Shown here one piece after another: positions 1,082 through 51,874 of a stretch of 64,000 nucleotides of DNA (its first letter is position 1; each line of letters starts with the position of its first letter). Both the position numbers and the translations under genes were made by a program. This stretch comes from a virus, in the IMG/VR virus record IMGVR_UViG_3300029908_000019, positions 1 to 64,000 of that record, one strand, 5' to 3'. The notes below the pieces were generated by a model, which saw only the letters and a program-made list of their open reading frames with translations, was not told where the DNA came from and did no database searches.

Positions 1082-1090
1082 GGAGGCGTT

Positions 1091-1296: not shown

Positions 1297-1310
1297 AAGT
1301 GTGTTATAAT
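1282..1310 (+). promoter_or_regulatory. sigma70-type promoter
   Basis: TTGCAA (1282-1287), 17 bases, TATAAT (1305-1310). The next ATG (1317) starts only 6 bases after the -10 box, about where transcription should begin, so the mRNA may be leaderless. Confidence 0.7.
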
Positions 1311-1316
1311 TAAAAT

Positions 1317-1645: not shown

Positions 1646-1658
1646 TAAGAGGAGAGAT

Positions 1659-1989: not shown

Positions 1990-2156
1990 AAAAGATTATT
2001 TTAAAGCAATTTCATTACATATTAATTGGATTCCTATCCATCCTGGCATCTGTTATTTTTATTAGTAGTGTATTGTTTTCCCCACTGGCTGGAGCTATTT
2101 TACTTATAATTGGTGTGAGTTATCTTTTAGGCCGATTTGCGTTGAATGAATTATAA
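1986..2156 (+). CDS. small membrane protein, two spans
   Basis: 56 residues with two hydrophobic segments (about residues 10-28 and 33-48, ILIGFLSILASVIFI and LAGAILLIIGVSYLL). Starts at ATG 1986 overlapping the previous stop. Candidates include a holin-like or superinfection-exclusion protein; nothing specific supports either. Confidence 0.55.
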   Translation: MKKIILKQFHYILIGFLSILASVIFISSVLFSPLAGAILLIIGVSYLLGRFALNEL

Positions 2157-2171
2157 GGAGAGTATATTCAA

Positions 2172-2264
2172 ATGTCTGATAAACTTATTCCTTGGGTAAT
2201 AGGTGGTCTTACATTAGTCACTGTCACTGCTGGAATTTTTACTTTATTACTATTTTTAAAATGA
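2172..2264 (+). CDS. single-span membrane peptide (30 aa)
   Basis: AAGGAGAG lies upstream of ATG 2172. The product is one membrane helix (GGLTLVTVTAGIFTLLLFL) after a short polar N-terminus. Stop TGA overlaps the next ATG (2261). Confidence 0.5.
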   Translation: MSDKLIPWVIGGLTLVTVTAGIFTLLLFLK

Positions 2265-2443
2265 CAAATAAATGTTTAATTTGTCAATGTGGCCATTCAC
2301 AGAGATTACATAGGTTGGGATTTGATTATTGTTTGGCTGATATGCCTCACGATAATTCCAAGGGTAGCAATGTAGAGTGGGATGCTTGCTATGCTTTTAA
2401 ATCTGATAACATTAGATATCTAGAGAGTCTAATAGATGAATGA
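2261..2443 (+). CDS. NLEYLE-tagged mini zinc protein
   Basis: 60 residues from ATG 2261. CQCGHSQRLH, then YCLAD and DACYAF, ending SDNIRYLESLIDE. A longer frame upstream is ruled out because it would run through the membrane peptide's coding region. Confidence 0.75.
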   Translation: MTNKCLICQCGHSQRLHRLGFDYCLADMPHDNSKGSNVEWDACYAFKSDNIRYLESLIDE

Positions 2444-2648
2444 AGATTTCCCTTGTTATTGTAGGCATCCATTAAAGAATCATGTAATGGATAGAGGTGG
2501 AATGAATCTCTGTTTAATGTGTGTTCCAAGCATCCTTAAGATTGGGGAGGGGGAATACAAGGTAGAAGAATATTTTGAAAGCACATATTGGTATCATACA
2601 TATAAGCCAGATAATATTAAATATTTAGAAAATGAAAGTGGAAAATAA
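2436..2648 (+). CDS. NLEYLE-tagged mini zinc protein
   Basis: 70 residues starting inside the previous gene's last codons. CYCRHPLKNH, LCLMC, then a longer acidic linker and PDNIKYLENESGK. Last gene before the intergenic region at 2649-2788. Confidence 0.75.
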   Translation: MNEDFPCYCRHPLKNHVMDRGGMNLCLMCVPSILKIGEGEYKVEEYFESTYWYHTYKPDNIKYLENESGK

Positions 2649-2677
2649 TATCCAAAAGTAACCATTACCTGATAATG

Positions 2678-2761
2678 AACTAACCATACACATCTATATT
2701 ATTTCTTATTTATATAAAGGCTAATAAGATATACATATATAACACTTGACAATGGTTAGTT
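2678..2761. repeat. 10-bp inverted repeat flanking a -35 box (candidate operator)
   Basis: AACTAACCAT at 2678-2687 is the exact reverse complement of ATGGTTAGTT at 2752-2761. The second copy begins directly after the -35 hexamer of the 2746-2774 promoter. A dimeric repressor or DNA-looping regulator could use the pair; the regulator is not known. Confidence 0.45.
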
Positions 2762-2774
2762 AATGTGATATACT
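2746..2774 (+). promoter_or_regulatory. sigma70-type promoter
   Basis: TTGACA (2746-2751), 17 bases, TATACT (2769-2774), followed by a ribosome-binding site at 2779-2783 and the GTG start at 2789. Drives the NUMOD3 protein, the DnaC-like gene and the run that follows. Confidence 0.8.
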
Positions 2775-2788
2775 TTATAGGAGTAGTT

Positions 2789-3316
2789 GTGCTTAAAAGA
2801 AAACATTCTAAAGAAACTATTGAAAAAATTCGTACAGCAATGATAGGTAAGAAGAAATCCAAAGAGACAATGATTAAAATATCAGAAACTTTAGCTAAAA
2901 AGCAAAAAAAGAATCAAAGCAGTTATAGATCCTTTGCTGGGCATGTTTCTTCTATCTATCAATCTGTAGAGAAATATGCCCATCATTGGAAGATTCCAAT
3001 TTCAGATATTGGTGAGTTTAGGAATTGGTCTTATCGTGATGTGGCTTATGAAGAACTTTTTAATATTTGGAAAGAGAATGGCTTTAATAAGTTTGATGTT
3101 CCAGTTGTTATGAGGAGTATTAAGAAGTATGGTTTTGTAATTGATAATCTTTCTTGGAAAAGGAAAGGGGAGTATTCCTGGTGGGGAGAGGAGTATGAAG
3201 TCTTAAAAGGTTTACAGGATGATGTTTCTAATAAGCAACCTATTGAAAATGAAGGAACAGAAGGACAGAAAGAGATTGTTAGGAAGTCTATGAAGGGAAG
3301 GAGATTCAAGAAATGA
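2789..3316 (+). CDS. NUMOD3-containing putative DNA-binding or homing-endonuclease-derived protein
   Basis: Start set at GTG 2789, six bases after AGGAG and directly downstream of a promoter. Residues 5-35 (HSKETIEKIRTAMIGKKKS) match the NUMOD3 DNA-binding motif usually appended to GIY-YIG and HNH homing nucleases. The middle (about 45-140) has the layout 'LFxxWxxxGF..VPVVMRSIKKYGFVIDNLSW', which resembles the DRIDxxKGYxxDN segment of HNH enzymes but lacks its catalytic residues. The tail is basic. It may be a nuclease remnant reused as a regulator; it sits just before the DnaC-like gene with a 4-base overlap. Confidence 0.6.
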   Translation: MLKRKHSKETIEKIRTAMIGKKKSKETMIKISETLAKKQKKNQSSYRSFAGHVSSIYQSVEKYAHHWKIPISDIGEFRNWSYRDVAYEELFNIWKENGFNKFDVPVVMRSIKKYGFVIDNLSWKRKGEYSWWGEEYEVLKGLQDDVSNKQPIENEGTEGQKEIVRKSMKGRRFKK

Positions 3317-3972
3317 GACTATGTGAGATAAAGACTCAAGTGCCAGATGAATATAAGAATTTTAATATTGTAGATATGATTGGTGATCCTATTGTTACTG
3401 AACCTATCAAGCAAACAGTGAATGATTATTTAAAAAATTTATTTACTAACGAGAAGAACGGTGCAGGTCTGTTATTCTATGGGATCTCAAATGGGACTGG
3501 TAAGACAGAGATTGCTTACTATGTCTTAGGTAAAGCCCAAGAAGGTAGAGTTAAATGGGATAGGATAGAACAAAGAGAAACAGTTGGCTATACTAAAATT
3601 ACTTCTATTCGTTGCTTTGATTATTTAAAATATTGTGGTAACTTTGCAGAGCATTTTGTGAATATGGTTCAAGAGATAAAGACTTCACCATTTCTTCTAT
3701 TGGATGAGCTTTCACCTGGAGCCTTTAGAAATAATATGGCTGCAGGTCAAGAAGAGATTGCAAGCTTGGTTGACTATCGAGTTAGCTTTAATCTACCTAC
3801 AGTTTATACTTCTAATTGTGAGAATCTAGACGTGCTAAAGAAATTGGTGGGGTCAACTCTGTATTCACGAATAGCTTATAAAGCTACACCAGTTAATTTT
3901 ACTGGTCCTGATGTAAGACCTTTGATTACAGAACAATTGAAAGAGGAGCTTTCTAATAAGGAGAATGAATAA
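3313..3972 (+). CDS. DnaC-like helicase-loader ATPase
   Basis: 219 residues. Walker A is GISNGTGKT (about 57-65), Walker B is FLLLDEL (about 133-139), and a sensor-1-like segment reads TVYTSNCE. This is the architecture of DnaC/DnaI AAA+ helicase loaders, which place the replicative helicase on DNA. The N-terminal about 50 residues would contact the helicase. No replicative helicase is visible in the window. It overlaps the NUMOD3 gene by four bases. A general phage AAA+ ATPase remains possible. Confidence 0.75.
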   Translation: MRLCEIKTQVPDEYKNFNIVDMIGDPIVTEPIKQTVNDYLKNLFTNEKNGAGLLFYGISNGTGKTEIAYYVLGKAQEGRVKWDRIEQRETVGYTKITSIRCFDYLKYCGNFAEHFVNMVQEIKTSPFLLLDELSPGAFRNNMAAGQEEIASLVDYRVSFNLPTVYTSNCENLDVLKKLVGSTLYSRIAYKATPVNFTGPDVRPLITEQLKEELSNKENE

Positions 3973-4085
3973 TGTGTTGGCCTAGGTATTGTTATGACTG
4001 CCACAAATGGATTAAGAATAACTTTTTTGGGTGGTTGCATTATACTTTCTGTAAAACATCCTGTTGTGCAATGAGGGATGAATAA
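3972..4085 (+). CDS. small Cys-rich protein (37 aa)
   Basis: ATG 3972 shares a base with the previous stop. CYDCHKW plus CKTSCC gives two Cys pairs, a probable zinc site, with no tag. Stop overlaps the next start. Confidence 0.5.
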   Translation: MCWPRYCYDCHKWIKNNFFGWLHYTFCKTSCCAMRDE

Positions 4086-4219
4086 TGTTAGCTTGTGTAG
4101 CTTTAGGCATTTTCTTTTTAATGTGTCTTATAGGAGCTATCCTTAAATGCTTTGAGAAACCTAAAGAAAGAATCCCACATGGTGCTATGGAACGTTGGTG
4201 GGAACTGGATATAAAATAA
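4085..4219 (+). CDS. small membrane protein, one span
   Basis: 44 residues. Hydrophobic segment at about residues 2-20 (LACVALGIFFLMCLIGAIL) followed by a basic tail (KCFEKPKERIPHG), predicting an N-out, C-in single-pass protein. Overlaps both neighbours by one base. Confidence 0.5.
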   Translation: MLACVALGIFFLMCLIGAILKCFEKPKERIPHGAMERWWELDIK

Positions 4220-4434
4220 TGAATGATTTAATTATAGTAGTTATATGGCTTTTATTAATAGTATTTTTTATGTATACCTCGTTGAAATTTATCTCAAACA
4301 AATTTAATATTCATCCAATGTGGATTTTGGCTATAGTGCCAGTTAATTTAGTTTGGTTTGCATTTTCTATGCTCCTAGCTGATGGTGTATTTTTTATTGT
4401 AGGTAAGATTGTTGGTCATAACTTTTTTCTATGA
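4219..4434 (+). CDS. small membrane protein, two spans
   Basis: 71 residues from ATG 4219 (TAATG overlap), chosen over an upstream GTG-class start at 4195 because of coupling. Hydrophobic segments at about 3-21 and 34-62. No family recognised. Confidence 0.55.
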   Translation: MNDLIIVVIWLLLIVFFMYTSLKFISNKFNIHPMWILAIVPVNLVWFAFSMLLADGVFFIVGKIVGHNFFL

Positions 4435-4574
4435 ATAAAGATATTGTAAAAGTAATTGAAGATTTATGTGGTAGCAATGAGAAAACACAAGAGTTAACGG
4501 ATTTAATAATGACCGAGGGTTCTGTTCGTTGTGTATTTGTGGCTATAAGTTATAATGGGTATCATAAAAACTAA
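4431..4574 (+). CDS. hypothetical protein (47 aa)
   Basis: Starts at ATG 4431 overlapping the previous stop. N-terminal amphipathic helix (MNKDIVKVIEDLCGSNEKTQ); the end looks like 'GSVRCVFVAISYNGYHKN'. No zinc pattern or tag. Confidence 0.45.
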   Translation: MNKDIVKVIEDLCGSNEKTQELTDLIMTEGSVRCVFVAISYNGYHKN

Positions 4575-4575
4575 A

Positions 4576-4764
4576 ATGAATAAAGAATTCCCTTGTATCT
4601 GTGGTCATTTATCTGAAGATCATGTGTCACGTCCTTACGATGGGAAACTCTATTGTGATGTTAGAGACTCTCGTAAAGGTCGCTTTATAGATGATTGCAT
4701 TGAGTATATCCCATCCAATATTAACTATTTAGAAAGTTTGGTGTGTAAAGGAGAAAGAAAATGA
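4576..4764 (+). CDS. NLEYLE-tagged mini zinc protein
   Basis: Start set at ATG 4576, immediately after the previous stop. CICGHLSEDH, YCDVRD and DDCIEY are the ligands; the tag is PSNINYLESLVCKGERK. The tail codes for AAAGGAGAAAG, the ribosome-binding site of the next gene, so the tag's 3' end doubles as a translation signal. Confidence 0.75.
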   Translation: MNKEFPCICGHLSEDHVSRPYDGKLYCDVRDSRKGRFIDDCIEYIPSNINYLESLVCKGERK

Positions 4765-4904
4765 AAAAGAAATGTAAGCATCCAGATTTTTGGTTTGATC
4801 GAACTATTGCTTATTGTCCTTATTGTAAAGAGGAACATATGGATAGCATTTGTAATGATTGTAATAAATCAGCTTGTGAAATTACACATGGGGGTAGGGT
4901 ATGA
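4761..4904 (+). CDS. double zinc-knuckle protein (47 aa)
   Basis: CKHPDFW, CPYCKEEH, CNDCNKSAC...H: two to three Cys pairs with His residues. No tag. Strong ribosome-binding site within the upstream gene. Confidence 0.55.
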   Translation: MKKKCKHPDFWFDRTIAYCPYCKEEHMDSICNDCNKSACEITHGGRV

Positions 4905-5167
4905 GAAAATTATTTATTATAGCAGCATTGCTATTTACAACTAGTTGCACAGTAAGAAAGTCATCAGAGGATAATGTAAATACAGTTAAACCTCATCTCA
5001 TTGTTTGTTTTTCCAGGGCAAATACAAATAGTTTTCCAAGGATAGAAAATTCTTATGGGGATGTTACCGTTGTGCATGGTAATGATATAGAATATATTGA
5101 ATTTACAGATGAAACTGGTTATGGGTTCCACATTGATTTAGATGAATATGATTGTGTAATTCGCTAA
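4901..5167 (+). CDS. putative secreted protein or lipoprotein
   Basis: 88 residues with a classical signal peptide: MRK, hydrophobic core LFIIAALLF, then TTSC (imperfect lipobox; Leu is missing at -3). The mature part is about 65 residues, beta-rich, ending in DLDEYDCVIR. Likely exported to the periplasm or outer membrane. A lysis spanin (Rz1-like) was considered, but no proline-rich segment or partner gene is present. Confidence 0.55.
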   Translation: MRKLFIIAALLFTTSCTVRKSSEDNVNTVKPHLIVCFSRANTNSFPRIENSYGDVTVVHGNDIEYIEFTDETGYGFHIDLDEYDCVIR

Positions 5168-5182
5168 GGAGAAGTTAACAAT

Positions 5183-5467
5183 ATGGAAATATATGAAAAA
5201 ATAGAGAAAGCTATTGAACTCCATCAACAAGTTAAAATTAGAACTTCTTCAGGTGATATTATAATTGTAACGTTGCCTTATAGTGCAGATCAGACTGTAT
5301 TCGCTGCTATGCGGGAGGTAGTAACAAAAATTTTTCCAATTAACGATTGCATATTGCTCCCAGAAGGATATAGCATCAGACGAGAAAGTGAAGAAGATGG
5401 TACACATGGTGTTTATCTGAATAATATTGAGTTCTTAGAGTATTTAGCCAATAAAAATAAGGCTTGA
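5183..5467 (+). CDS. NLEYLE-tagged protein with a non-zinc N-terminal domain
   Basis: 94 residues. Residues 1-75 are an alpha/beta domain without cysteine pairs (VKIRTSSGDIIIVTLPYSA). The C-terminus is YLNNIEFLEYLANKNKA, a clear tag, showing that it is carried by unrelated folds. Start behind AAGGAGAAG. The last codons contain the -35 box of the next promoter. Confidence 0.7.
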   Translation: MEIYEKIEKAIELHQQVKIRTSSGDIIIVTLPYSADQTVFAAMREVVTKIFPINDCILLPEGYSIRRESEEDGTHGVYLNNIEFLEYLANKNKA

Positions 5468-5492
5468 CAAAATTATAAAAGGATGGTATACT
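5464..5492 (+). promoter_or_regulatory. sigma70-type promoter
   Basis: TTGACA (5464-5469), 17 bases, TATACT (5487-5492). The ATG of the KTSC gene is at 5498, five bases past the -10 box, implying a leaderless transcript. Confidence 0.75.
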
Positions 5493-5497
5493 AATAT

Positions 5498-5743
5498 ATG
5501 GATGAAATTAAGAATGAAGATATTGAGATGACACCTGTTGTATCAAGTAACATTTCAGCTATTGGCTTTAAAGGGGATACTCTTAGAGTAACCTTTACCA
5601 ATGGAGCTACATATGAGACTTCAGGAGCTTCCCAGGCTGATTATGATTCATTCTTAGCGTCTAAGAGTAAGGGAATTCACTTCAATAAAAATCTTAAGAG
5701 AGCTTTTGAATTTAAGAAAATAGAGAAGAAGGGAGATTTATGA
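5498..5743 (+). CDS. KTSC-domain protein
   Basis: 81 residues. The pattern 'SAIGFKGDTLRVTFTNGATY' followed by 'FLASKSKGIHFNKNLKRAF' matches the KTSC domain (Lys-Thr-Ser-Cys), a small fold found alone or fused to other domains in phages and bacteria; its function is not settled. No ribosome-binding site; start coincides with the predicted transcription start. Confidence 0.75.
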   Translation: MDEIKNEDIEMTPVVSSNISAIGFKGDTLRVTFTNGATYETSGASQADYDSFLASKSKGIHFNKNLKRAFEFKKIEKKGDL

Positions 5744-5880
5744 GAAATTTTTTTAGAATTGCAAGCCTATTTGTACTCGGATCAACCCTAGCTTACAGAG
5801 GAATTACTTGGCATCAGCCTTCTTTCTATGTTATTATTGTTGCTGTCATAGTTTATGGTGTGTCCTGGTTTCAAGACTAA
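5740..5880 (+). CDS. small membrane protein (46 aa)
   Basis: AAGGGAG precedes ATG 5740, which overlaps the KTSC stop. Two short hydrophobic stretches (about 7-17 and 29-43). No family recognised. Confidence 0.5.
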   Translation: MRNFFRIASLFVLGSTLAYRGITWHQPSFYVIIVAVIVYGVSWFQD

Positions 5881-5898
5881 ATAAAAAGGAGGTATAAC

Positions 5899-6024
5899 AT
5901 GGAAAATCAAGTGCTGTTGCTGTTAGTGAGTAGTGTGCTGCTGCTTACCGTTGCATTAGTTCAGATTCGTAAGTTGAACCTCGTTGCTCGTGCTCGTCGT
6001 CTGCACACACGACTGCCTAAGTAA
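5899..6024 (+). CDS. single-span membrane protein with basic tail (41 aa)
   Basis: Strong AAGGAGG site. Hydrophobic residues 5-21 (VLLLLVSSVLLLTVALV), then a strongly basic tail (RKLNLVARARRLHTRLPK) with GC-richer codons than its neighbours. Probably membrane-anchored with a cytoplasmic, nucleic-acid-binding tail. Confidence 0.55.
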   Translation: MENQVLLLLVSSVLLLTVALVQIRKLNLVARARRLHTRLPK

Positions 6025-6175
6025 TGGACAGGGATCAATGCAGAGGTTGTGGTCATTACCATTTCTTTTCCAAAGAGAAAACTCTTGCATTGATATAGTT
6101 TGTGGATGTAATAGAAGAACGTTTATTCCGTTAGATAATTTAGAATATTTAGAGTGGTTTGTTAGGAAGGAGTAA
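6024..6175 (+). pseudogene. NLEYLE-tagged mini zinc gene with a frameshift
   Basis: From ATG 6024 the frame encodes MDRDQCRGCGHYHFF and then stops at 6096-6098 (TAG). Reading one base back at the A-run 6078-6081 restores CIDIVCGC...FIPLDNLEYLEWFVRKE and ends at 6175. Both halves match the array's pattern, so a single lost A (or a -1 frameshift) splits it. Decay, sequencing error and programmed frameshifting are all possible. Confidence 0.6.
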
Positions 6176-6178
6176 ATT

Positions 6179-6820
6179 ATGAAGAGAGTTTTGAACAGTG
6201 GTTCCATAAATCTTTTGGGAATTTTAGGCACAGAAGAGAATATTTTTGAGTATATTTCCTCTTCACCTGATCTTAATACTCTTACACAAGATGAGTCTTT
6301 AGACCTAGTTTATTCTAAATACAACGGATATCATTTCTCCCAGATTGTATTTAAGTTCCAAGTGAAAGCCCCTATCTTAATCCTACAATCCCTTCAAAAA
6401 TCTCGTTTAGGCACCTTAGAGTCGTTTCCCATACAGGACACCTCAGAAGTGTATTTACCCCCTAGTTTCTATAGATACGGCTCAACAGAGGGCTTCCTAG
6501 CAGCATCCTCCAAAGAGTGTAATGATCTAAATACAAAGTATAGTAATTTTTACCGAAATGTGCTAAACTTCTATCAGAACCTATTAAAATCTGGAGTGTG
6601 TCAAGAACAAGCTGATTTGGTTCTACCCCTTGGTTTGTTTGTTACATTCAACTGGGTAGTGAATGCCCAGGATGTTATTAAATTTATAGAAAAGAATTAT
6701 AATGAATCACCAGAATTAAGTGGTTATTGTTCAACATTCGTGCTATACTTAGAAGACACAATGCCTATTATTTCTGATTGGTTGAAGAGAACAAAATGGC
6801 AAAATTACAAGCTAATTTAA
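6179..6820 (+). CDS. degenerate ThyX-like protein
   Basis: 213 residues behind GAAGGAG. The centre reads 'VFKFQVKAPILILQSLQKSR', where flavin-dependent thymidylate synthases (ThyX) have 'F.I.APIFVARQWHRHR'. Downstream 'LGTLESFP..DTSEVYLPPSFYRYG' parallels the ThyX 'SxNExSxRY..YxP' segment. The C-terminal 'ADLVLPLGLFVTFNW' matches ThyX 'AR.VLPLxLYTxFxW'. The signature RHR is missing and the catalytic Ser context is altered. The fold looks conserved but activity is doubtful. Confidence 0.6.
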   Translation: MKRVLNSGSINLLGILGTEENIFEYISSSPDLNTLTQDESLDLVYSKYNGYHFSQIVFKFQVKAPILILQSLQKSRLGTLESFPIQDTSEVYLPPSFYRYGSTEGFLAASSKECNDLNTKYSNFYRNVLNFYQNLLKSGVCQEQADLVLPLGLFVTFNWVVNAQDVIKFIEKNYNESPELSGYCSTFVLYLEDTMPIISDWLKRTKWQNYKLI

Positions 6821-6971
6821 TTTGTACGTTGGTCATTTATATAAAGACCACGGTATTTTTAAAGCTGATTCCTATGGAGATTCATTGAAAAAAGCTTGCA
6901 TCTGTAATGAATTCAAATTAGACAACATCAAATATCTAGAAGAGTGTTACGAGGATTCTCAACGTGCTTAG
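6796..6971 (+). pseudogene. NLEYLE-tagged mini zinc gene with a frameshift
   Basis: ATG 6796 opens MAKLQANLICT, and the frame then breaks. One frame over, the sequence continues GHLYKDHGIF...KACICNEFKLDNIKYLEECYEDSQRA to TAG 6969-6971. One base appears missing near 6822-6830, inside what should be the CxCGH codons. This is the second frameshifted member within 800 bases. Confidence 0.55.
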
Positions 6972-7263
6972 ACTTATTGGAATCATTTGTGCAACGATAG
7001 CTATAACCTTTGATTTCCTTAGCTATTATAAACAAATCCATAAAACTCTTAAAGCTAAACACTCTAATCAGGTATCCTCTTCGTCCTATTTATTTAAGAT
7101 AGCGAAGATATTATTTAATTTGATTAACTTAGCAATTTTCAGTAACTTTGTAGGCTGCTTTATGGAAGGAATGGCATTGATTATTTGTATTATTGCTCTT
7201 ATGATCATTTGCCATTTCAAGCCTCGTGGCTGGCACCTAATTGATTTTAAAATGGGAAAATAA
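6964..7263 (+). CDS. PQ-loop/SemiSWEET-like membrane protein
   Basis: 99 residues from GTG 6964 with three hydrophobic segments (about 3-20, 45-65 and 68-85). After the first comes 'YYKQIHKTLKAKHSNQVS', resembling the P-Q-x3-[TS] loop of PQ-loop and SemiSWEET small-molecule transporters, with Lys for the Pro. Length and three-helix layout fit a SemiSWEET. Assignment is tentative. Confidence 0.45.
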   Translation: MLRLIGIICATIAITFDFLSYYKQIHKTLKAKHSNQVSSSSYLFKIAKILFNLINLAIFSNFVGCFMEGMALIICIIALMIICHFKPRGWHLIDFKMGK

Positions 7264-7264
7264 G

Positions 7265-7453
7265 ATGATTTGTAGATGTGGCTATCACTTGCAAGAACAC
7301 TGTGCAGGAACGATAGATCCAAAGATTTATTATAAAGATTTCGACTGGAGTTATGTTTCAGATGGCACACAGTGGGATGAGAATTGCAAGTGTCTTAAGT
7401 TTAGGCCAGACAATATTAGATTTTTAGAGATGAAAGCTAATGAGCTTCAATAA
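7265..7453 (+). CDS. NLEYLE-tagged mini zinc protein
   Basis: 62 residues. CRCGYHLQEHC has Tyr before His, then ENCKCLKF, then PDNIRFLEMKANELQ. ATG 7265 is just after the stop of the membrane protein. Confidence 0.75.
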   Translation: MICRCGYHLQEHCAGTIDPKIYYKDFDWSYVSDGTQWDENCKCLKFRPDNIRFLEMKANELQ

Positions 7454-7676
7454 TATAATTCCATGGGATACTTATAAATCACAAACTCCTTGTAAAGTGT
7501 GTGGGCATAAGTGGTCGCACCATAGAGATGAGGTAGGCTGTTTAGGAGTATTTAAGAAAGAGGAAGATCCAAAATCATTTTGGCTTGGCACCTGCAAAAG
7601 CACTTGTAAGAAGTACTGTGAAACTAATTTAGAATACCTTGAGTATAAATATGAGCAAGAACAGAATAAAAAATAA
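7440..7676 (+). CDS. NLEYLE-tagged mini zinc protein
   Basis: 78 residues. CKVCGHKWSHH, GCLGVF, TCKSTCKKYC: a CxxC variant with extra cysteines. Tag ETNLEYLEYKYEQEQNKK. Confidence 0.75.
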   Translation: MSFNNIIPWDTYKSQTPCKVCGHKWSHHRDEVGCLGVFKKEEDPKSFWLGTCKSTCKKYCETNLEYLEYKYEQEQNKK

Positions 7677-7872
7677 AAGTTTAATTTGTCAATGTGGGCA
7701 TAGTGAAGACAGCCATGCAGATTTAATATCCTATAAGACTGAGTATTGTAGTGAGTGTTGGAACAAGAGATGGTGGAAAAAGTATAAAAATTTAGATTTT
7801 GATGATTTACCTTTTGAATTATGTACTAATTTTAAAGAAGATAGCATTAAGTTTCTTGAGAGTTTAATATAA
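7651..7872 (+). CDS. NLEYLE-tagged mini zinc protein
   Basis: 73 residues; ATG 7651 inside the upstream gene is preferred over TTG 7639. CQCGHSEDSH, YCSECW, LCTNF, then EDSIKFLESLI, with the tag's Asn replaced by Ser. Confidence 0.7.
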   Translation: MSKNRIKNKSLICQCGHSEDSHADLISYKTEYCSECWNKRWWKKYKNLDFDDLPFELCTNFKEDSIKFLESLI

Positions 7873-8288
7873 TGGCTATATCAAAAAATTTTACTTTTAA
7901 CTCTCCCATTGTTGGGATTGACTCGATTACAAAAGGATCATTTATAATCAGGTATGCTTAGAATATTTTCTCTTATAACTATGACGACGAAAAAGAACCT
8001 CAATTAGCCAGAGGAGAATTTGCTATAGAAAGTAAGATTAAGTCTGTAGATAATGCACTCTTTGTTCTTGCAAAAAAAGAACCCCTAAGACTTCAAGGAC
8101 TTATTGGGGCAGTTAATTTTGGTGGGGAGAAGAGATTTATTAAAATAAGATCTATACATAATTATACTATAGATCCAGATTACAGTGAGACTGAGGCAAT
8201 TATACTTTCCGTTACATTTGAGATATTGGATAATATTGAGTATTTAGAGAATCTAATTGATTACCGGGATTGGAATTTACTACAATGA
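7872..8288 (+). pseudogene. tagged gene interrupted by an in-frame amber codon
   Basis: ATG 7872 opens MAISKNFTFNSPIVGIDSIT and reaches TAG at 7959-7961. The same frame then stays open for 108 codons to TGA 8286-8288. It encodes a soluble alpha/beta protein that ends LDNIEYLENLIDYRDW, a good tag. No obvious restart signal follows the amber. TAG is used as a normal stop elsewhere (for example 40061-40063), so a nonsense mutation is the simplest reading. Suppression is an alternative. Confidence 0.6.
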
Positions 8289-8467
8289 AGGATACTTGTA
8301 GAACTTGTCGATGCCACATATCTTGGCATGTGTCTAATGGTAAATGTTGCTATTATAATAATCTACTGTTTAGGGATTCTGTTGTAGATGCAGCCTGGGA
8401 TGGTTGCATGAAATATGCTCCTTCAGATAATTTGGAATACTTGGAGAGTTTAGTTGATGAAAAATAA
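8285..8467 (+). CDS. NLEYLE-tagged mini zinc protein
   Basis: 60 residues. ATG 8285 overlaps the previous stop (ATGA). CRTCRCHISWH, KCCYY, DGCMKY, then SDNLEYLESLVDEK. Confidence 0.75.
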   Translation: MKDTCRTCRCHISWHVSNGKCCYYNNLLFRDSVVDAAWDGCMKYAPSDNLEYLESLVDEK

Positions 8468-8633
8468 TAGACCATGTGAATGTGGATGCAGCTTTGAAGA
8501 GCATAAAGCTATAGTATTGGAATCAGGATTAATTTGTAGTCTTTACTGTATGAATTGTGATAAGCACCAGGAATGGTGCTATAATTATCGTCCTATTAAA
8601 AACATAGAATATTTGGAATGGTTAAGCAAATGA
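8457..8633 (+). CDS. NLEYLE-tagged mini zinc protein
   Basis: 58 residues beginning inside the tag codons of the previous gene. CECGCSFEEH, CSLYCMNC, WCYNY, then IKNIEYLEWLSK. Confidence 0.7.
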   Translation: MKNNRPCECGCSFEEHKAIVLESGLICSLYCMNCDKHQEWCYNYRPIKNIEYLEWLSK

Positions 8634-8749
8634 TTTGTATATTATGTAAGCATGATAAGACAGAACATGAGTCAACAAAAGTTTTTCGTGAAGATTGGGC
8701 AGAGCATATTTTTATGGATAGCCTACAATATTTGGAATCTCTAGTATGA
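8630..8749 (+). CDS. NLEYLE-tagged mini zinc protein, shortest member
   Basis: Only 39 residues: ICILCKHDKTEH, a linker, and MDSLQYLESLV. The second Cys pair is absent, so this may be the minimal unit of one CxxC...H plus tag. Its stop overlaps the deformylase start. Confidence 0.65.
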   Translation: MICILCKHDKTEHESTKVFREDWAEHIFMDSLQYLESLV

Positions 8750-44660: not shown

Positions 44661-46775
44661 ATGTCTCGATTTACTGACGCTATCCGTAATGAAATAGGTC
44701 CTAATGTAGCATCGTTATCCAAAGCAGCCACTGACCCTTCTTACTGGTCATTGTCTAATTTGGATATTGATTTATATGACAACCAAGTTGCCATGATTGA
44801 TGCTGTCTGTGACTTGAATAAACCTTATATTGGGATACTTGCTTCTCGTGGATCTGGAAAAACTTTTTGTGCTGCTATTGGGTTAGTTAAACTTTGTCTG
44901 GATAATCCTGGTTTTCGTATTGGCATATTTGGTCCAAAGATGGAGACAGCTAAACGATTAGTTAAAGAAGACATTATCGGTCGTATTCTTACTCCCTCCT
45001 CCAAAGTGTATACCCAGATTGACTGGGAACATTCCTCCAACTCATTTATCCATTTTAAAAATGGTTCCACTATAAAAGCATTGTCAGCCTCTCCTACTGC
45101 AACACAAGAATCGGAGCACTTTCATTGTGTTTTGGGTTCTACTGAAGTAAAAACTCGATTGCAAAATAAGCAAATATGCGATATCCTTATAGGTGAGGAA
45201 GTATTATCTTTTAATTTAGATTCAAATCAGGAAGAATTTAAACCAGTAGTAGCTATTTCTAAAAAGCCTACTATTAAAAAGATATATAGAATTAGAACTG
45301 AAAATGGTAAAGAATTGACTTGCACAGAAGATCATAGAATTTATACGAAAAATAGAGGCTATATAGAAGCAAAAGATTTGACTCTAGAAGATACGGTGAT
45401 TACTATTGGGGCATTAACAAATATAAAATCCATAGAGATTGTTGATGAGAAAGTTGACTATGTTTATGATATTCAAGTAGAGAGCAACAATAACTTTTTT
45501 GCCAACGATATTTTGATTCATAATTGTGTTGTTCTTGATGAGTGTTTAACTGAAGAGTCTATAATTACTCTTGCAGATGGAACTAAAAAGACTATTGGAG
45601 AAATTGTTAAAAGTAAGACACCCGTTAAAGTTCTTTCTTTTGATGAAAAACAGAATAAACTTGTGGAAGCTGATGTTATAGATTTCAAGAAGATCCCACT
45701 AAAAAAGCAATTACTAGAGATCAAATTGGAAGATGGAAAGACTATTAAATGCACAGAAGATCACAAATTCTATACTAGAAATCGCGGATGGGTAGAGGCT
45801 AAGAATTTGACTGAAAAAGATGATTTAATAAATATTAAGATATGTGAAGGTTGTGGTATTACATTTATTCCTTTAAAGAATGCCAGATTCTGCACCAATA
45901 AGTGCTATGTTAAATGGTTTGAGAAGAACAAGAGAAAGGAAGAAAGAATCTGCCAGCAATGCAAAAAACCTTTTCAGGCTGTAACTAGAGCTAATGCTAA
46001 ATTTTGTAGTTATAATTGTGAGAAAACTAGAATTTGCCTGTATTGTCAGAAACCCTATGTTCGTATTGGTCAAGAAAAATATTGTTCTCCAGAATGCAAG
46101 AAAACAGTTAGAGTATCTAGAATTAAACCACGAACTGGGTGTGTAGTTTGTGGGAAACTCTCAAGAGATAGAGATACTACCCATTGCATGAAGCATAATA
46201 ATTGGACTGATACTACAGGTGTTCCTGTTATCACAAAATGTATTATATGTAATAATGAATTTACTATTGTAGAGAACAGGAAATTAACTTGTTCCGATGT
46301 ATGTCTATCTAAATCTCGTAGTGATAGGATGACTCTGAATAATCCTACTAGTAATCCAGAAACTGTAGAAAAGATTAAAGAAAGTCTTAAAATTTTCTTC
46401 GAAGAGCATCCTGATAAATTGTCTGAGCGTTTAAAGAATTTTAAAAATGCTCCTGTATATACCAGGGGCAAAATGACTCGCCCAGAGCAAGCCATTATAG
46501 CTATGAATATTCCTAATCTTAGATATACTGGGGATGGTACTAAATGGATAACTTTCTCCAATAAGAAACATAAGAATCCAGATTTTTGGTTTGATGGAAC
46601 AGCAAAGGTTGTTGAAGTTGGAGATTTCCAATTTTGGCATACAAAAGAAGAAGCTGCTGAAGTAGTTAGACTTTATAAAGAAAAGAATACGGAATGCCTA
46701 TACCTTGACGCAGATAATGTTATGAAGAATCCTATTGAAGCTGAAAAGCAGATAAGGAGTTTTCTATGCATATAA
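44661..46775 (+). CDS. terL: terminase large subunit, N-terminal half, with mini-intein and N-half of a split intein plus nuclease
   Basis: 704 residues. 1-155: terminase ATPase with Walker A SRGSGKT (Lys67). 156-288: complete mini-intein ending IHN. 289-294: the six-residue extein CVVLDE, which is the Walker B motif. 295-about 392: a second intein N-half (CLTEESIITLADGTKKTIGE...CTEDHKFYTRNRGWVEAKN). Then zinc knuckles (CEGCGITF, CQQCKKPF, CLYCQKPY, CVVCGK, CIICNNEF) and an EDxHD/Vsr-like nuclease (NPDFWFDGTAKVVEVGD) before the stop. The C-half of the intein and terminase is the next gene. The motor pumps DNA into proheads. Confidence 0.88.
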   Translation: MSRFTDAIRNEIGPNVASLSKAATDPSYWSLSNLDIDLYDNQVAMIDAVCDLNKPYIGILASRGSGKTFCAAIGLVKLCLDNPGFRIGIFGPKMETAKRLVKEDIIGRILTPSSKVYTQIDWEHSSNSFIHFKNGSTIKALSASPTATQESEHFHCVLGSTEVKTRLQNKQICDILIGEEVLSFNLDSNQEEFKPVVAISKKPTIKKIYRIRTENGKELTCTEDHRIYTKNRGYIEAKDLTLEDTVITIGALTNIKSIEIVDEKVDYVYDIQVESNNNFFANDILIHNCVVLDECLTEESIITLADGTKKTIGEIVKSKTPVKVLSFDEKQNKLVEADVIDFKKIPLKKQLLEIKLEDGKTIKCTEDHKFYTRNRGWVEAKNLTEKDDLINIKICEGCGITFIPLKNARFCTNKCYVKWFEKNKRKEERICQQCKKPFQAVTRANAKFCSYNCEKTRICLYCQKPYVRIGQEKYCSPECKKTVRVSRIKPRTGCVVCGKLSRDRDTTHCMKHNNWTDTTGVPVITKCIICNNEFTIVENRKLTCSDVCLSKSRSDRMTLNNPTSNPETVEKIKESLKIFFEEHPDKLSERLKNFKNAPVYTRGKMTRPEQAIIAMNIPNLRYTGDGTKWITFSNKKHKNPDFWFDGTAKVVEVGDFQFWHTKEEAAEVVRLYKEKNTECLYLDADNVMKNPIEAEKQIRSFLCI
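45126..45524 (+). mobile_element. mini-intein (133 aa) in terminase
   Basis: Starts at Cys156 (CVLGSTEVKTRL), has block B CTEDHRIYTKNRGYIEAKDL and blocks F/G DYVYDIQV...FFANDILIHN, with Cys as the +1 residue. There is no endonuclease domain between blocks B and F. All residues needed for class 1 splicing (Cys1, block B His, terminal His-Asn, Cys+1) are present. Confidence 0.88.
45543..46775 (+). mobile_element. split intein N-half fused to EDxHD homing endonuclease
   Basis: Begins at Cys295 immediately after the Walker B LDE. Block A and B are intact; after about 98 residues the sequence becomes a zinc-knuckle string and a Vsr/EDxHD-type nuclease instead of block F. It terminates at TAA 46773-46775. 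Split inteins interrupted by nucleases of this type have been described in phage-like genes; here the nuclease is in frame with the N-half rather than free-standing. Confidence 0.82.
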
Positions 46776-46870
46776 AATCTATCAAAAAGATTGAGAAGAC
46801 TGATTATGTTTACGATTTAACAGTCAAGGATACCCATTGCTATTTTGCCAATGACATTCTTGTGCATAAT
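46766..46870 (+). mobile_element. split intein C-half (35 aa)
   Basis: 35 codons ending VHN before Cys+1 (46871), the usual size for a C-intein of the DnaE class. Very similar to blocks F/G of the mini-intein just upstream (shared DYVYD and FFANDIL/YFANDIL), so the two inteins are relatives. Confidence 0.85.
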
Positions 46871-48034
46871 TGTCACCGTACTAGTGATTTTGTAATAAAA
46901 GAAAAAATTGTACCCATGCTCGGTAGTTTTTCCATTGCAAAAACTATTAAGATTGGAATTTCTTTGTATAAAAATAATTTTTGGCATAGCTGCAATGATA
47001 ATGGGACTAAATATTATGTTATTCGTAAACCATGGAATGAGTGTGATATTTATTGGCTTCAGGGTTCAATTGAATATGAGGGAAGAAGTTATCCAAAACG
47101 TATTGTCGATCTGATGCCTAAGACGGTCAAAGAAAGACTTTTCCCCCATGATCTTTCTCTTCAGTATGACTCCGTGGAAGGGTATTCTGAAATTGAGTGG
47201 AATACTCAATATGAAATGATCTGGATGGAAGACATCAATTTAGTTCTATCAGGTGAGCAACAGAAGAAACTTGCCTCTGGTCTATTTGATATTCTACCCA
47301 AGGGTCGTCCTGAGATGACAGAAAAGTATTATTTTGGTTTGGATACTGCTTCTGGCACATTGATGCCTGGGCAAAAAGACCTAGACTGGACTGTTTTAAC
47401 AATTCTTAGGAAGAATGGTGATAATACCAAGGATATTGTAGCAAAATACCAATGGCAGGGTGACGTAGTAGAGCAGATGCAGGAGATTAAGGATATTGTT
47501 CATCCTGTAAATGGTATTTTCCAGTGTGTGATGGGTCTAGCTGATTATTCAAATATCGCTATTGGCATTGTTGAAATGTTTAAACGAGAAGGTATTCCAA
47601 TAGCTGGAGTTACTTTTGGAGCTTCAGAGCCTATTACCAAAAAGAATTATAAAAACGCCATGTTTGATCAATTTGTCTTTGAGCTGGATAGTGGAAGAGT
47701 ACAGTACCCTAGTTTAGAGAAAATTAAGAAGAATAAGGCTTTCAAAGATGGGTATGAACAGTGGGGAATGGTAGAAAGACATCGTAAACTCGGTATAAAT
47801 GATAAAATCTTTGTAGATCCGAGTGCAGGACACGACGATCACACTTCCGCAGACGTACTCGCAATCTGGTGTGCAGATCAGGAGAAGTCTTACGCAGGTA
47901 AGGTTGTGCGAACGATGAAGGGCATTCCAGCCCCTATCGCAGGGCCAAGCAACCTCAGCGGCCTAGGTTCTCCGATGCCTGGACAACCGGGAGATCCGAA
48001 CCAGGGACGCTTTCTTAAGGATAGGTTAACATGA
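46766..48034 (+). CDS. terL: split intein C-half plus terminase large subunit, C-terminal half
   Basis: 422 residues from its own ATG 46766 with AGGAG (46755-46759), in a different frame from the N-half and overlapping it by ten bases. Residues 1-35 are the intein C-half (TDYVYDLTV...YFANDILVHN), then Cys36 starts the extein CHRTSDFVI, continuing the DE|CH motif. Residues 190-380 are the RNase-H-like nuclease with acidic residues in GLDTASG, LADYS and HDDHTSAD. Trans-splicing would give a terminase of about 548 residues, a normal size. The C-terminus is Gly/Pro-rich. Confidence 0.88.
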   Translation: MHIKSIKKIEKTDYVYDLTVKDTHCYFANDILVHNCHRTSDFVIKEKIVPMLGSFSIAKTIKIGISLYKNNFWHSCNDNGTKYYVIRKPWNECDIYWLQGSIEYEGRSYPKRIVDLMPKTVKERLFPHDLSLQYDSVEGYSEIEWNTQYEMIWMEDINLVLSGEQQKKLASGLFDILPKGRPEMTEKYYFGLDTASGTLMPGQKDLDWTVLTILRKNGDNTKDIVAKYQWQGDVVEQMQEIKDIVHPVNGIFQCVMGLADYSNIAIGIVEMFKREGIPIAGVTFGASEPITKKNYKNAMFDQFVFELDSGRVQYPSLEKIKKNKAFKDGYEQWGMVERHRKLGINDKIFVDPSAGHDDHTSADVLAIWCADQEKSYAGKVVRTMKGIPAPIAGPSNLSGLGSPMPGQPGDPNQGRFLKDRLT

Positions 48035-48283: not shown

Positions 48284-48508
48284 ATGAAAGCCATTAAAAC
48301 ACTTGATGAGGCACATAAATATTTGCTGTATGTAGCAGATGCTCTATATAATGTTGGATCTAGTTTCCACATTGATAAACAAGATAGAGTTATATTGGAA
48401 AAGTGTGCAAATGATTTAGCAGAATATGCAAAGGGAATTGCACAAGTAAAGAATAATATGGTGACGAAAGAAGAGATGAGAAAGAAAGAGATGGAAGAAG
48501 ATAAATGA
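48284..48508 (+). CDS. hypothetical helical protein (74 aa)
   Basis: Two or three amphipathic helices (LDEAHKYLLYVADALYNVG, VILEKCANDLAEYAKGIAQV) and a very charged C-terminus. First gene of the transcript from 48201. Confidence 0.5.
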   Translation: MKAIKTLDEAHKYLLYVADALYNVGSSFHIDKQDRVILEKCANDLAEYAKGIAQVKNNMVTKEEMRKKEMEEDK

Positions 48509-48684
48509 TTTGTAAGTGTGGTCATAGGCAGGAAGATCACGATATAAATAGAAAAACTAAGAATACAACGGGCATGTGCTGTGTTGCTGCTCAACCTCCA
48601 TGTGGAAAATATGCAGACGAGTGCATGAGCTTTATTCCCGATAATTTAAAATTTTTAGAGTTGATGAGTGATAAGAGGAGTTAA
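48505..48684 (+). CDS. NLEYLE-tagged mini zinc protein
   Basis: 59 residues, directly upstream of the portal gene. CKCGHRQEDH, CCVAA, ECMSF, then PDNLKFLELMSDKRS. Overlaps its neighbour by four bases. Confidence 0.75.
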   Translation: MICKCGHRQEDHDINRKTKNTTGMCCVAAQPPCGKYADECMSFIPDNLKFLELMSDKRS

Positions 48685-48686
48685 TT

Positions 48687-48884
48687 ATGAGTAGACCAAA
48701 AGGAAGCAAGAATAAAAGCATAGAAAAGACTGGTAAGATGCTAAAGGATGGAAGTACTCCATTTACACTTGGGACAGAAAAAACTGCCTCACTTGCTAAA
48801 GAAGCTACCGGAGAGTATTCCGTTACACAAACCCAGTCATTTTTCTATTCACCTGAGCTTAACATAATGGGCTCCTTATCCTGA
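48687..48884 (+). CDS. portal protein, exon 1
   Basis: GAGGAG precedes ATG 48687. 65 codons, ending FFYSPELNIMGSLS, then an in-frame TGA formed by the first bases of the group I intron. True exon 1 ends at T48882; splicing to 49122 gives 'GSLSFLPKSRQEILKW', matching the N-terminal region of phage portal proteins. Contains the linker TASLAKEATG also seen in the giant proteins. Confidence 0.82.
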   Translation: MSRPKGSKNKSIEKTGKMLKDGSTPFTLGTEKTASLAKEATGEYSVTQTQSFFYSPELNIMGSLS

Positions 48885-49121
48885 AAGGGATTTGAAATAA
48901 GTTGGCCATATCGGTGAAACTCCTACTCGATAGAGAGGACAATACCGAGGGAAGATTGGAAAGAAGTTTTCCAAAACCCGTAGAGACTAAACGCCAACCT
49001 CCTTGCAAAAGGATGAAGTTATAGTCCAGACTCATTAGAGATAATGAGAGTTGATTAGAAATAATCAGCCGCCTTCGTAAGAAGGTCTTAAAAGTAATAG
49101 ACAGCACTTCGGATAGCTGGG
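48883..49121 (+). mobile_element. group I intron (239 nt, no internal gene)
   Basis: P1: exon ATCCT pairs with GGGAT (48887-48891) with the expected U-G at the splice site. P3: GTTGGC (48901-48906) with GCCAAC (48993-48998). P7: GACTA (48985-48989) with TAGTC (49022-49026). P8, P9 and two further hairpins follow, including CCTTC-GTAA-GAAGG. The last intron base is G49121. Exon 2 TTC can pair with intron GAA for P10. The joined reading frame makes a sensible portal protein. Confidence 0.88.
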
Positions 49122-51874
49122 TTCTCCCAAAGTCACGTCAGGAGATCCTTAAATGGCCATTGTTATCTACTTCAAAAGTATTGACATTCAATGGTTTTAA
49201 ACAGATTTCTGATATTGTTATTGGAGATTTAGTTCTTTCTTCAACTGGAAAATGGCAAAAAGTTTTAGATACTCAGCGAAAGAAAGCTGATGCTGAAGCT
49301 GTTAAACTTACTATTAAATACTGCCCTCCTGTGGAGATGGCAGCGTATCACCCTGTATTGGGTATTCAATCTAAAGGTCAACATAGAACTCTACGTGATG
49401 CTATTAGATTTGGTTTTGTTAACCCCAAAGAAAAATTGACTTGGATTGACGCAAATCTTCTGCAAGAAGGGGATCTTGTTGCTTGTCCTAAAGTTAAAGT
49501 ATCTTCAACAGGTATTGTTGACTTTTATATTCCTGAACCTTTTAAAAATAGATTATGTAATAAATCAGGCGGCCAAGTTCCAGTAGCTGAAAGAAATTCT
49601 CAAACTATTACAGTTTCTAATAGAGATGTAGTATATGATATGCCAGCATTTTTACCTATGACTAACTCTATGTTTGAATTTATGGGGTGGTATGCTGCTG
49701 AAGGTCATACCAATAGTGATAATGCAACTAATCATCATATGAGTGTTGTTTTGACTCTTTCCAATGATGAGTTGGAAGTTGCAAAAAAATTAAAAAACTT
49801 CTTAGTGTCAGAACTTAATATTCCAGAGCATAAGATTTCTATACAACCACATAATGGTAGTCTACGATTGGTTATTAATAACACTGTTCTTGCAGAATTT
49901 TTAGCTAAGTATTTTAAATCCGGTGCTGAAAATAAAGATATTCCAAATTGGTTATTGGGTGCAGAGGATTCACTTGTCCTATCTTTTCTGCGTGGTTGGG
50001 TAAAGGGAGATGGAACAATTCAAAAGGTAACAAGTACAAGAACAGCTTTTTCAGCTTCTACAGTTTCACAAGACTTAGCCTATAAGGGCCATTTACTTTT
50101 TAATAAAGTTGGAATTCCTGTATGGTTTAGAGAAAAGGTTCAAGATTTAGATTATATTAATAAGCATTCAAAAATACAAATGAAGTCAGTTGCTCCAGTT
50201 TGTTATAGTTTGGGAGTATCTGGTTCTAGTATTAATAAGTTGTTTCCAGGATTATATAATCATGCAAAATCTGAGACAATGTATTTTGAAGATGACCAGT
50301 ATTTCTATTTTCCAGTAACTGATGTAGAGGTCTTTAATACAAGTAAAGATTTCTGTTGTGTAACCACGGAAGACCATACAATCAATGTCCCATTTACCAC
50401 TCACAACTGCCGAATTTTCTTTAATCTGGAGCCTTACATCCAACAGATTACGGTGATGCATTCTCTTTACCCATTTTCCAAATTTGATATGGTCGTAGCC
50501 GATCCCTCCATTAAAAAGTTCTACGAAGAAATGTCCTCTAATGGGAATTTTAACCTTTTTGAATTTATTCTTCAAGCTTCTCTTTCACGAGAGAAATTTG
50601 GGGAAGCTATTTGTTTTGGTAACTTGACTCAAGATGAAACAGCAAATAAATCAGGTAAGAAGCTTTGGAGATGGTCTAATTTTATTTTGTTAGAGCCTGA
50701 ACTTGTAGAGATTAAGACAGACATGCTATCAGGTAAGAAAACTTTTGAAATGGTTCCCACTGAGGAAATTAAAGCCCTTGTTTCCTCTACTCGTCCAGAA
50801 GATCAAGAACGTGTAGAAGAGCTTAAGGAATCTTCCCCCGAACTAGTTAATGCAGTATTGGAGCATAGAAATATTAAACTCGATGAAGAATGTGTATCAC
50901 AAATTGCTCGTATTACCGATCCCTCTGCTACACGAGGAACATCGAGAATTCAATCATGTTTTAAAGCATTAATTTTACAAGACTGGATTCGCCTTGCACA
51001 ATCTGCTTATGCAAAAAATTATGTATTTCCAAAAGAACTTTGGACCATTGGTGATTTAGCAAGTAACACAATGCCTTCACAAACTGATCTAGATAATTGG
51101 AAACAATTAATTAATAGTTCAATTCAGAGTCCTCCTTTCACAATTATTGCTCCTCCCATTGTTCACTATGAACCTTTGTCAGTTATGGGTAAGCAGTTTC
51201 CTCTCAATGCTGAATATGATTATATTCAAGACCAGCTATTGGTTGGTTTAGGTGTAAATAAAAATATTATTTTAGGGGAAGGCCCAAACTTTGGCAATAG
51301 CAAAACAATGGCCCTTCAAGCCTTGGTTATGCAATATAAAGCTGTGCGTGATAAGTTTGAGGATTGGATGATTAATAAATTCTTCAGACCTATTGCTGAG
51401 AAAAATGAATTCTATACAGTTGATCCTGATACGGGTGAGAAGCAGCTTATTTTGCCCCAAATTTCTTGGTATAAATCTTTGGATATTGATGCTCAAGAAA
51501 GAGAGCAAGAACAGTTTGCTGAATTTCATAAAGAGGGCCTTATTTCAACTAAGACCTTATTTAGCAAGTATCCTAACTTGGATTATGAAACTGAACGTAA
51601 ACAATTGGAAGAAGAACGCGGTACAATATTTGATAAGGGTTCCAAAGACAATCGCCTACCTGCTAAGATATCTAGACCCAGTGGTGAGGGAATGGGTGGT
51701 GGGGGTGGAGGAGATATGGGTGGGGGTATTGGTGAGCCACAGGAACCTGTAGAACCAGGAGAACCTTCAGAAGAGGGTGCTGAGGGTCTTCCTGAAGCAG
51801 CTACAGAAGGCACCACAGAGGTTGGAGAAACTAATGTTGGTGGTACTAGTGATCTTGGAGCCCCAGAAGTATGA
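49122..51874 (+). CDS. portal protein, exon 2, containing an intein
   Basis: After the intron the frame reads FLPKSRQEILKW, then a 417-residue intein (49157-50407), then CRIFFNLEPYIQQITVM and the remaining about 480 residues of a portal. The portal is the 12-fold ring at one head vertex through which DNA enters. 'WIRLAQSAYAKNYVFPKELW' and the C-terminal Gly/Glu/Pro tail are typical. Taken alone, the frame opens at TTG 49160, which is inside the intein and is not a real start. Followed by an HNH gene overlapping by four bases. Confidence 0.85.
49157..50407 (+). mobile_element. portal intein with LAGLIDADG nuclease and proline at position 1
   Basis: Begins PLLSTSKVLTFNGFKQISDI directly after extein Trp and ends FTTHN before Cys+1. 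Position 1 is Pro, not Cys or Ser; block F reads DFCCVTTED with Cys at position F:4, and block G has Thr before His-Asn. These are features of class 3 inteins. However, the block B Trp of the WCT triplet is not at its expected place (AAYHPVLG). The central LAGLIDADG nuclease has motifs FMGWYAAEG and FLRGWVKGDG. Confidence 0.82.

What the first reader, a model, noticed from the sequence alone, without database searches (positions are those of the whole stretch)
44661..48034. Terminase split into two genes by a split intein carrying an in-frame EDxHD nuclease
The terminase large subunit is encoded by two overlapping genes in different frames. The first ends with an intein N-half, zinc knuckles and a Vsr/EDxHD-like nuclease. 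The second starts at its own ATG and ribosome-binding site with a 35-residue intein C-half, then Cys and the rest of the terminase. DNA packaging would then depend on protein trans-splicing. Split inteins with nucleases between the halves are known as fractured genes, but fusion of the nuclease to the N-half is less usual.
Basis: partly seen in the sequence, partly recalled or inferred. Interest (0 to 1): 0.85.

Follow-up and report, generated by a model that had tools for sequence, protein, structure and literature searches.

The report
Phage packaging motor split by intein
A phage's DNA-packaging enzyme is interrupted by two self-removing protein segments only six residues apart, and the second is itself split between two genes with a homing-type DNA-cutting enzyme fused to its first half, so the enzyme should become complete only after its two pieces are joined as protein.

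Summary
ORF1 (44661-46775) and ORF2 (46766-48034) overlap by 10 nt in different frames and together encode a T4-type terminase large subunit (TerL). Removing the inteins gives 548 residues that align end to end with intact TerLs of about 20 metagenomic phages, whose empty sites (HFH[V/C].VLDE[A/C]HR) fix both insertion points. There are two inteins, six residues (CVVLDE, Walker B) apart: a complete 133-aa mini-intein, not mentioned in the finding's text, and the split one (IntN 98 aa, IntC 35 aa). IntN continues in frame into five zinc knuckles and a Vsr-like domain whose nearest solved structure is I-Bth0305I, the EDxHD prototype. IntC has its own Shine-Dalgarno and ATG.

Split inteins with nucleases between the halves, and split TerL inteins, are already known. 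In-frame fusion of the nuclease to IntN is uncommon: 23 of 24 IMG/VR loci with this IntN motif have a stop 12-27 codons after it. It is not unique: the same layout is in the TerL of Streptococcus phage vB_SagM-GXN1 (unannotated) and in a 4.3-kb IMG/VR contig, which argues against a sequencing error. Verdict: real, a new variant of a known kind. Trans-splicing and homing are inferred, not shown.

The parts
44661..46775 (+). ORF1, 704 aa: TerL N-part, mini-intein 1, Walker B hexapeptide, N-half of intein 2, zinc knuckles, Vsr/EDxHD-like nuclease
44661..45125 (+). TerL N-extein, 155 aa, with Walker A ASRGSGKT
   Evidence: alignment with intein-free relatives L003-L024; Terminase_6N
45126..45524 (+). 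Intein 1: complete 133-aa mini-intein (Cys1, CTEDH, YVYD, DILIHN, Cys+1); inserted just before the Walker B strand
   Evidence: PF14890, TIGR01445/01443; empty site in relatives
45525..45542 (+). CVVLDE, six-residue middle extein, Walker B with the acidic DE
45543..45836 (+). N-half of split intein 2 (98 aa; Cys1, CTEDHKFYTRNRGW)
   Evidence: PF14890 and TIGR01445; closest found relative is the split RNA-ligase-like intein of L027
45837..46370 (+). Linker with five Cys-Cys knuckles (CxxC...CxxxC, the fourth CxxC...CxxH), probable DNA-binding arm
   Evidence: sequence; phrog_1271 and phrog_15471, HNH endonucleases
46431..46772 (+). Vsr-like EDxHD-family nuclease domain (core match 46446-46685)
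   Evidence: HMM of 36 IMG/VR nucleases E 5e-10; PDB profile hits 1cw0, 1vsr, 1odg, 3r3p; model pLDDT 89.5, top fold 3r3p
46754..46759 (+). Shine-Dalgarno AAGGAG of ORF2, inside the end of ORF1
46766..48034 (+). ORF2, 422 aa: C-half of intein 2 plus TerL C-part
46766..46870 (+). C-half of split intein 2 (35 aa, ends ILVHN, followed by Cys+1)
   Evidence: PF14890, TIGR01443
46871..48031 (+). TerL C-extein, 387 aa, starts CHRTS

Best explanation
The TerL gene carries two mobile inteins, probably of independent origin, around its Walker B motif. Intein 1 is a mini-intein that should splice in cis within the ORF1 product. Intein 2 is a natural split intein: its N-half stays covalently attached to a zinc-knuckle and Vsr/EDxHD-type nuclease, and its C-half is made from the second gene by re-initiation at an overlapping Shine-Dalgarno and ATG. 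The halves associate and splice in trans (Cys1/Cys+1 chemistry), joining HFH-CVVLDE-CHRTS into a 548-aa packaging motor and releasing an IntN-nuclease by-product. The nuclease probably is, or recently was, the homing endonuclease that spreads the element into intein-free terL genes. Shown by sequence: the gene anatomy, both insertion points, the splicing motifs, the nuclease family and the start site. Inferred: splicing in cis and in trans, re-initiation, homing.
For: All class 1 splicing residues are present in both inteins. Exact empty sites in about 20 relatives. IntC starts at its own ATG with a strong SD. A 312-codon open nuclease frame. Vsr/I-Bth0305I family membership by profile and fold. 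Two separate TerL loci have the same layout: GXN1 (ORF 2253-4859 of L122 overlapping the IntC ORF 4840-5214 by 20 nt, SD AGGAGG) and L030 (32-nt overlap). L027 has the close form with a separate nuclease ORF that overlaps the IntC ATG by 4 nt. Inteins 1 and 2 are not sisters in the tree, though support is weak. Inteins have lower GC (29-31%) than the exteins (39-40%).
Against: No expression or splicing data. Only one genome carries this exact element; no relative of the nuclease region was found in the IMG/VR scan. The nuclease has a one-residue insertion in the GD.WH loop (GDFQFWH for FGDYWH) and lacks the near-invariant WE, so activity is uncertain. In L030 the nuclease is of another type and the SD is weak.
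Confidence: 0.85

Rival explanations
1. The frame break is a sequencing or assembly error, and the real gene holds one continuous 445-residue intein with an internal nuclease, spliced in cis.
For: The open overlap zone is only about 34 nt and holds AAAA and TTTT runs; the nuclease sits at the usual endonuclease position of inteins.
Against: A strong SD with correct spacing and an ATG stand exactly at the start of IntC. Overlapping starts occur in two other TerL loci, one in the genome of an isolated phage, and in L027. Intein 2 clusters, with moderate support, with inteins that are split.
Confidence: 0.07
2. The frames are genuine, but a programmed -1 frameshift also makes a full-length cis-splicing precursor.
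For: ORF2 lies in the -1 frame, and an SD-like AAGGAG lies in the overlap.
Against: No X_XXY_YYZ slippery heptamer in the overlap; the SD-to-ATG spacing is that of an ordinary start.
Confidence: 0.05
3. Splicing occurs as described, but the nuclease is degenerate and serves no homing; it is only a relic on the N-half.
For: Loss of the near-invariant WE and an altered GD.WH loop; a patch in the nuclease (46560-46600) resembles an unrelated small ORF at 4764-4804 (88% over 41 bp).
Against: The long frame is intact, the E, D and H positions are kept, the fold is predicted with high confidence, and the GXN1 nuclease also lacks WE.
Confidence: 0.3
4. The two TerL pieces work as two separate chains without splicing.
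For: Genes split by homing endonucleases that work in pieces are known (phage ribonucleotide reductase, cited in PMC10448857).
Against: All splicing residues including Cys+1 are kept. The split and intein 1 lie on either side of Walker B, which must stay continuous with the rest of the ATPase; halves interrupted there are unlikely to work.
Confidence: 0.03

Closest known systems
Fractured genes: natural split inteins with Vsr-like/EDxHD homing endonuclease genes between the halves (Dassa et al. 2009, cited in PMC10448857 and PMC6892783; the paper itself is not held)
   Same: Conserved phage gene broken at a conserved site, IntN and IntC in separate genes, nuclease between them, usual split position
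   Different: There the nuclease is a gene of its own (my knowledge; and so in L027, L033, L060 and most of the 24 surveyed loci). Here it is fused in frame to IntN and overlaps IntC
AceL-TerL and GOS-TerL split inteins (PMC11766414)
   Same: Natural split inteins in TerL, trans-splicing shown experimentally
   Different: Atypical split with short IntN (25 and 37 aa); here 98 + 35, with a nuclease on IntN and a second intein. Relative insertion sites not known to me
Streptococcus phage vB_SagM-GXN1 terL (PQ819873; L122, L130, L140)
   Same: IntN fused in frame to a Vsr-like nuclease, IntC ORF overlapping its end with a strong SD
   Different: At another TerL site (HPPNS|SKDISD in the nuclease domain). 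Its TerL is in three genes, the N piece 60 kb away; its other split site is the pre-Walker-B site used here by intein 1
Bacillus phage SP-15 and Listeria phage LIS04 terL
   Same: Split intein in TerL at the pre-Walker-B site, which is the site of intein 1 here
   Different: IntN ends at a stop; no nuclease is fused to it
I-Bth0305I (PDB 3r3p) and Vsr (1cw0)
   Same: Fold and E, D, H positions of the nuclease domain
   Different: I-Bth0305I is encoded by a group I intron and Vsr is a repair enzyme (my knowledge); the window's domain lacks WE and has a one-residue loop insertion
Pseudomonas phage MIJ3 PolB (PMC6892783)
   Same: Split intein with an endonuclease between the two parts of an essential gene
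   Different: DNA polymerase B, HNH nuclease in its own ORF

Membership tests
Natural class 1 split intein | N-half with Cys/Ser1 and block B TxxH; C-half with block F Asp, HN and Cys/Ser/Thr+1, on separate ORFs | tested here: met
Natural class 1 split intein | Exact insertion in a conserved host protein shown by empty alleles | tested here: met
   about 20 intein-free relatives
Natural class 1 split intein | Trans-splicing activity | not testable with these tools
   needs co-expression or proteomics
Fractured gene (split intein plus homing endonuclease) | Nuclease coded between the two intein halves | tested here: met
Fractured gene (split intein plus homing endonuclease) | Nuclease as a gene of its own, IntN closed by a stop soon after block N4 | tested here: not met
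   IntN runs on for 312 codons; 23 of 24 survey loci close within 12-27 codons of the motif. Filed as a variant for this reason
EDxHD (Vsr-like) homing endonuclease | Vsr-like fold and profile similarity to I-Bth0305I | tested here: met
EDxHD (Vsr-like) homing endonuclease | Catalytic E, D, H, D | tested here: inconclusive
   E (RPEQ), D (NPDF) and H (FWH) present; the last D aligns with E, as in some relatives (L040, L064); GDFQFWH insertion, WE lost
EDxHD (Vsr-like) homing endonuclease | Cleaves the intein-free allele and homes | not testable with these tools
   needs DNA cleavage or co-infection assay
AceL-TerL / GOS-TerL type split intein | Short IntN of 25-37 aa with long IntC | tested here: not met
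   IntN 98 aa, IntC 35 aa
T4-type terminase large subunit | One continuous ATPase-plus-nuclease chain after removal of the inteins | tested here: met
   full-length relatives; distant match to Bacillus phage G gp1

The most novel reading that the evidence does not exclude
IntN-nuclease fusions with an overlapping, re-initiated IntC are a distinct recurrent form of intein element (here, GXN1 and L030, all in TerL), in which the selfish nuclease is made in a fixed ratio to the N-half and translation of the C-half is coupled to it. In this phage the six-residue Walker B segment is placed only by two splicing events, so the packaging ATPase is doubly gated by splicing.
Probability: 0.35. Interest if true: 0.65.

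Novelty: new variant of a known kind. Interest (0 to 1): 0.52.

Why it matters
It shows a form between the bifunctional intein (nuclease inside one chain) and the fractured gene (three separate genes), and suggests how one may turn into the other. It gives a natural two-intein system, one cis and one trans, with a six-residue middle extein that holds the Walker B acids, which is a demanding test of intein compatibility and of possible cross-talk between homologous halves. It makes phage DNA packaging depend on protein splicing and can be tested directly in E. coli. It also shows that split TerLs lie unannotated in isolated phages such as GXN1.

Tried and rejected
Group I intron joining at the RNA level: Rfam finds only one intron in the window, in the portal gene and not in terL. 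Tandem duplication of one intein: intein 1 and intein 2 are 46% identical over 109 aa, but intein 2 is closer to the split RNA-ligase-like intein of L027, and the tree, with weak support, does not make them sisters. Canonical -1 frameshift: no slippery site. Direct search for relatives of the zinc-knuckle and nuclease region in IMG/VR: none; in deposited phages only a weak match to a Gordonia HNH-annotated protein. TerL relatives in bacterial genomes (genome contigs): none, so no host was inferred. Relatives of the L030 fusion: none beyond itself with the fused layout. Pfam alone does not recognise the nuclease domain; it took a family profile built from IMG/VR sequences. One search was in the wrong frame. 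Dassa et al. 2009 is not held, so statements about it rest on citing papers and on my own knowledge.

Full report
What is there. ORF1 (44661-46775, 704 aa) and ORF2 (46766-48034, 422 aa) overlap by 10 nt in different frames. Parsing gives: TerL 1-155; intein 1, 133 aa; CVVLDE; the N-half of intein 2, 98 aa; 312 aa of zinc knuckles and nuclease; then in ORF2 a 35-aa IntC and 387 aa of TerL. Pfam, NCBIfam and PHROGs recognise the terminase and both inteins.

The splice points are not guesses. A 548-aa protein made by joining HFH, CVVLDE and CHRTS aligns without break to about 20 intein-free TerLs from IMG/VR, most at 67-82% identity. Their sequences read HFHVLVLDEAHRTS, HFHCVVLDEAHR or HFHVLVLDECHR at the two sites. 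Both +1 Cys residues occur separately in intein-free relatives, so neither needs a special origin.

Two inteins. Both have class 1 residues (Cys1, CTEDH, YD, HN, Cys+1). Intein 1 sits before the Walker B strand, a site also used in SP-15, LIS04, GXN1, Gordonia phage Clown, Escherichia phage BUCT618 and L030. Intein 2 sits just after the DE pair, the same relative place as in a DnaX-like protein (L123, LFDE|CHRLS) and a helicase-like protein (L125, IIDE|C). Here both Walker B sites are filled at once, leaving a six-residue middle extein. The two inteins are homologous (46% over 109 aa) but not nearest kin: intein 2 groups with the split inteins of L027/L084 (85/77 support), intein 1 does not; most of the tree is unresolved.

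The nuclease. The C-terminal domain has no Pfam hit. A DNA motif scan for VIE.FGD.WH gave 49 IMG/VR stretches. A profile of 36 of these matches ORF1 596-675 at E 5e-10. With the window included, the profile finds Vsr (1cw0 E 1.9e-7; 1vsr; 1odg) and the I-Bth0305I catalytic domain (3r3p E 1.5e-5) in the PDB. The AlphaFold2 model has mean pLDDT 89.5, and its best PDB match is 3r3p (Foldseek probability 1.00, E 6.5e-3). E, D and H of the EDxHD signature are kept and the last D is E, as in some relatives. The GD.WH loop has one extra residue, and the near-invariant WE is LD. GXN1's nuclease also lacks WE, so this alone does not prove decay.

How ORF2 is made. AAGGAG at 46754-46759 lies 6 nt before the ATG, as at other genes of this phage. 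The in-frame stop upstream of that ATG is only 24 nt away, so the ATG at 46766 is the natural start. There is no classical slippery site. Termination-reinitiation is the simplest reading (inferred).

How unusual the fusion is. In 24 IMG/VR loci with the CT.DH..[FY]T.N.GW IntN motif, 23 IntNs end at a stop 12-27 codons after the motif, usually with an IntC about 0.8-1.0 kb downstream; one (L093) is a continuous mini-intein. None carries a fused nuclease. Several loci are near-identical copies, so independent cases are fewer. L027 (RNA-ligase-like gene), L033 and L060 show separate Vsr-like nuclease genes next to IntC. Two loci share the fused layout: L030, a TerL whose IntN is fused to knuckles and an endonuclease I-like nuclease with IntC overlapping by 32 nt; and Streptococcus phage vB_SagM-GXN1, whose 868-aa ORF runs IntC(a)-TerL-IntN(b)-nuclease and overlaps the IntC(b)-TerL ORF by 20 nt with an AGGAGG signal. 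GXN1's TerL N piece, annotated as terminase, lies 60 kb away with its own IntN. The GXN1 nuclease profile score is weak (9.8 bits for the domain), so its EDxHD assignment rests mainly on the motif IIEIDGVRWH.

What was known. EDxHD is one of six homing endonuclease families, with I-Bth0305I the prototype (PMC3943268). Natural split TerL inteins AceL-TerL and GOS-TerL splice in trans (PMC11766414). A split PolB intein with an HNH gene between the parts is reported in phage MIJ3 (PMC6892783). Terminases are called a common intein target (PMC8228797). I found no report of an IntN-nuclease fusion with an overlapping IntC, but the founding paper on fractured genes is not held, so that absence is weak evidence.

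Judgement. The structure is a new variant of a known kind rather than a new kind of system. Protein splicing is very likely (0.85), homing activity moderately likely, and all functional steps are inferred from sequence.

Noticed in passing
48687-51874: The portal gene is broken by a group I intron (Rfam RF00028, 48850-49048, E 6e-13) after ...SFFYSPEL, and about 17 codons into the next exon by an intein with a LAGLIDADG domain (about 49157-50407). The intein starts with Pro (ILKW|PLLSTSKV...THN|CRIFF), as does its relative in L019, suggesting a class 3-type intein. L011 appears to carry the same intron.
   Followed up: partly
46560-46600 and 4764-4804: 41 bp, 88% identical, shared by the catalytic NPDFWFD codons of the nuclease and a small ORF encoding KKKCKHPDFWFDRTIAYCPYC; looks like a short recombination patch or a coincidence of sequence.
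   Followed up: partly
283-8749: Many tiny ORFs with a CxCGHxxxxH start and a DNIKYLE-like end, apparently a diverged family of small zinc-binding proteins repeated through this region; another at 48505-48684.
   Followed up: no
L122, L130, L140 (PQ819873): Streptococcus phage vB_SagM-GXN1 TerL appears to be coded in three genes joined by two split inteins, with the N piece 60 kb from the others; only the N piece is annotated as terminase.
   Followed up: partly
L127: In Bacillus phage SP-15 the TerL N-part carries a continuous intein (SP15_022), then breaks off and resumes at SP15_024 with a resolvase-like gene between (possible intron), then a split intein; the terminase is in several pieces.
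   Followed up: partly
L028: A metagenomic TerL split near Walker A by a split intein with a separate HNH-type gene between the halves.
   Followed up: no
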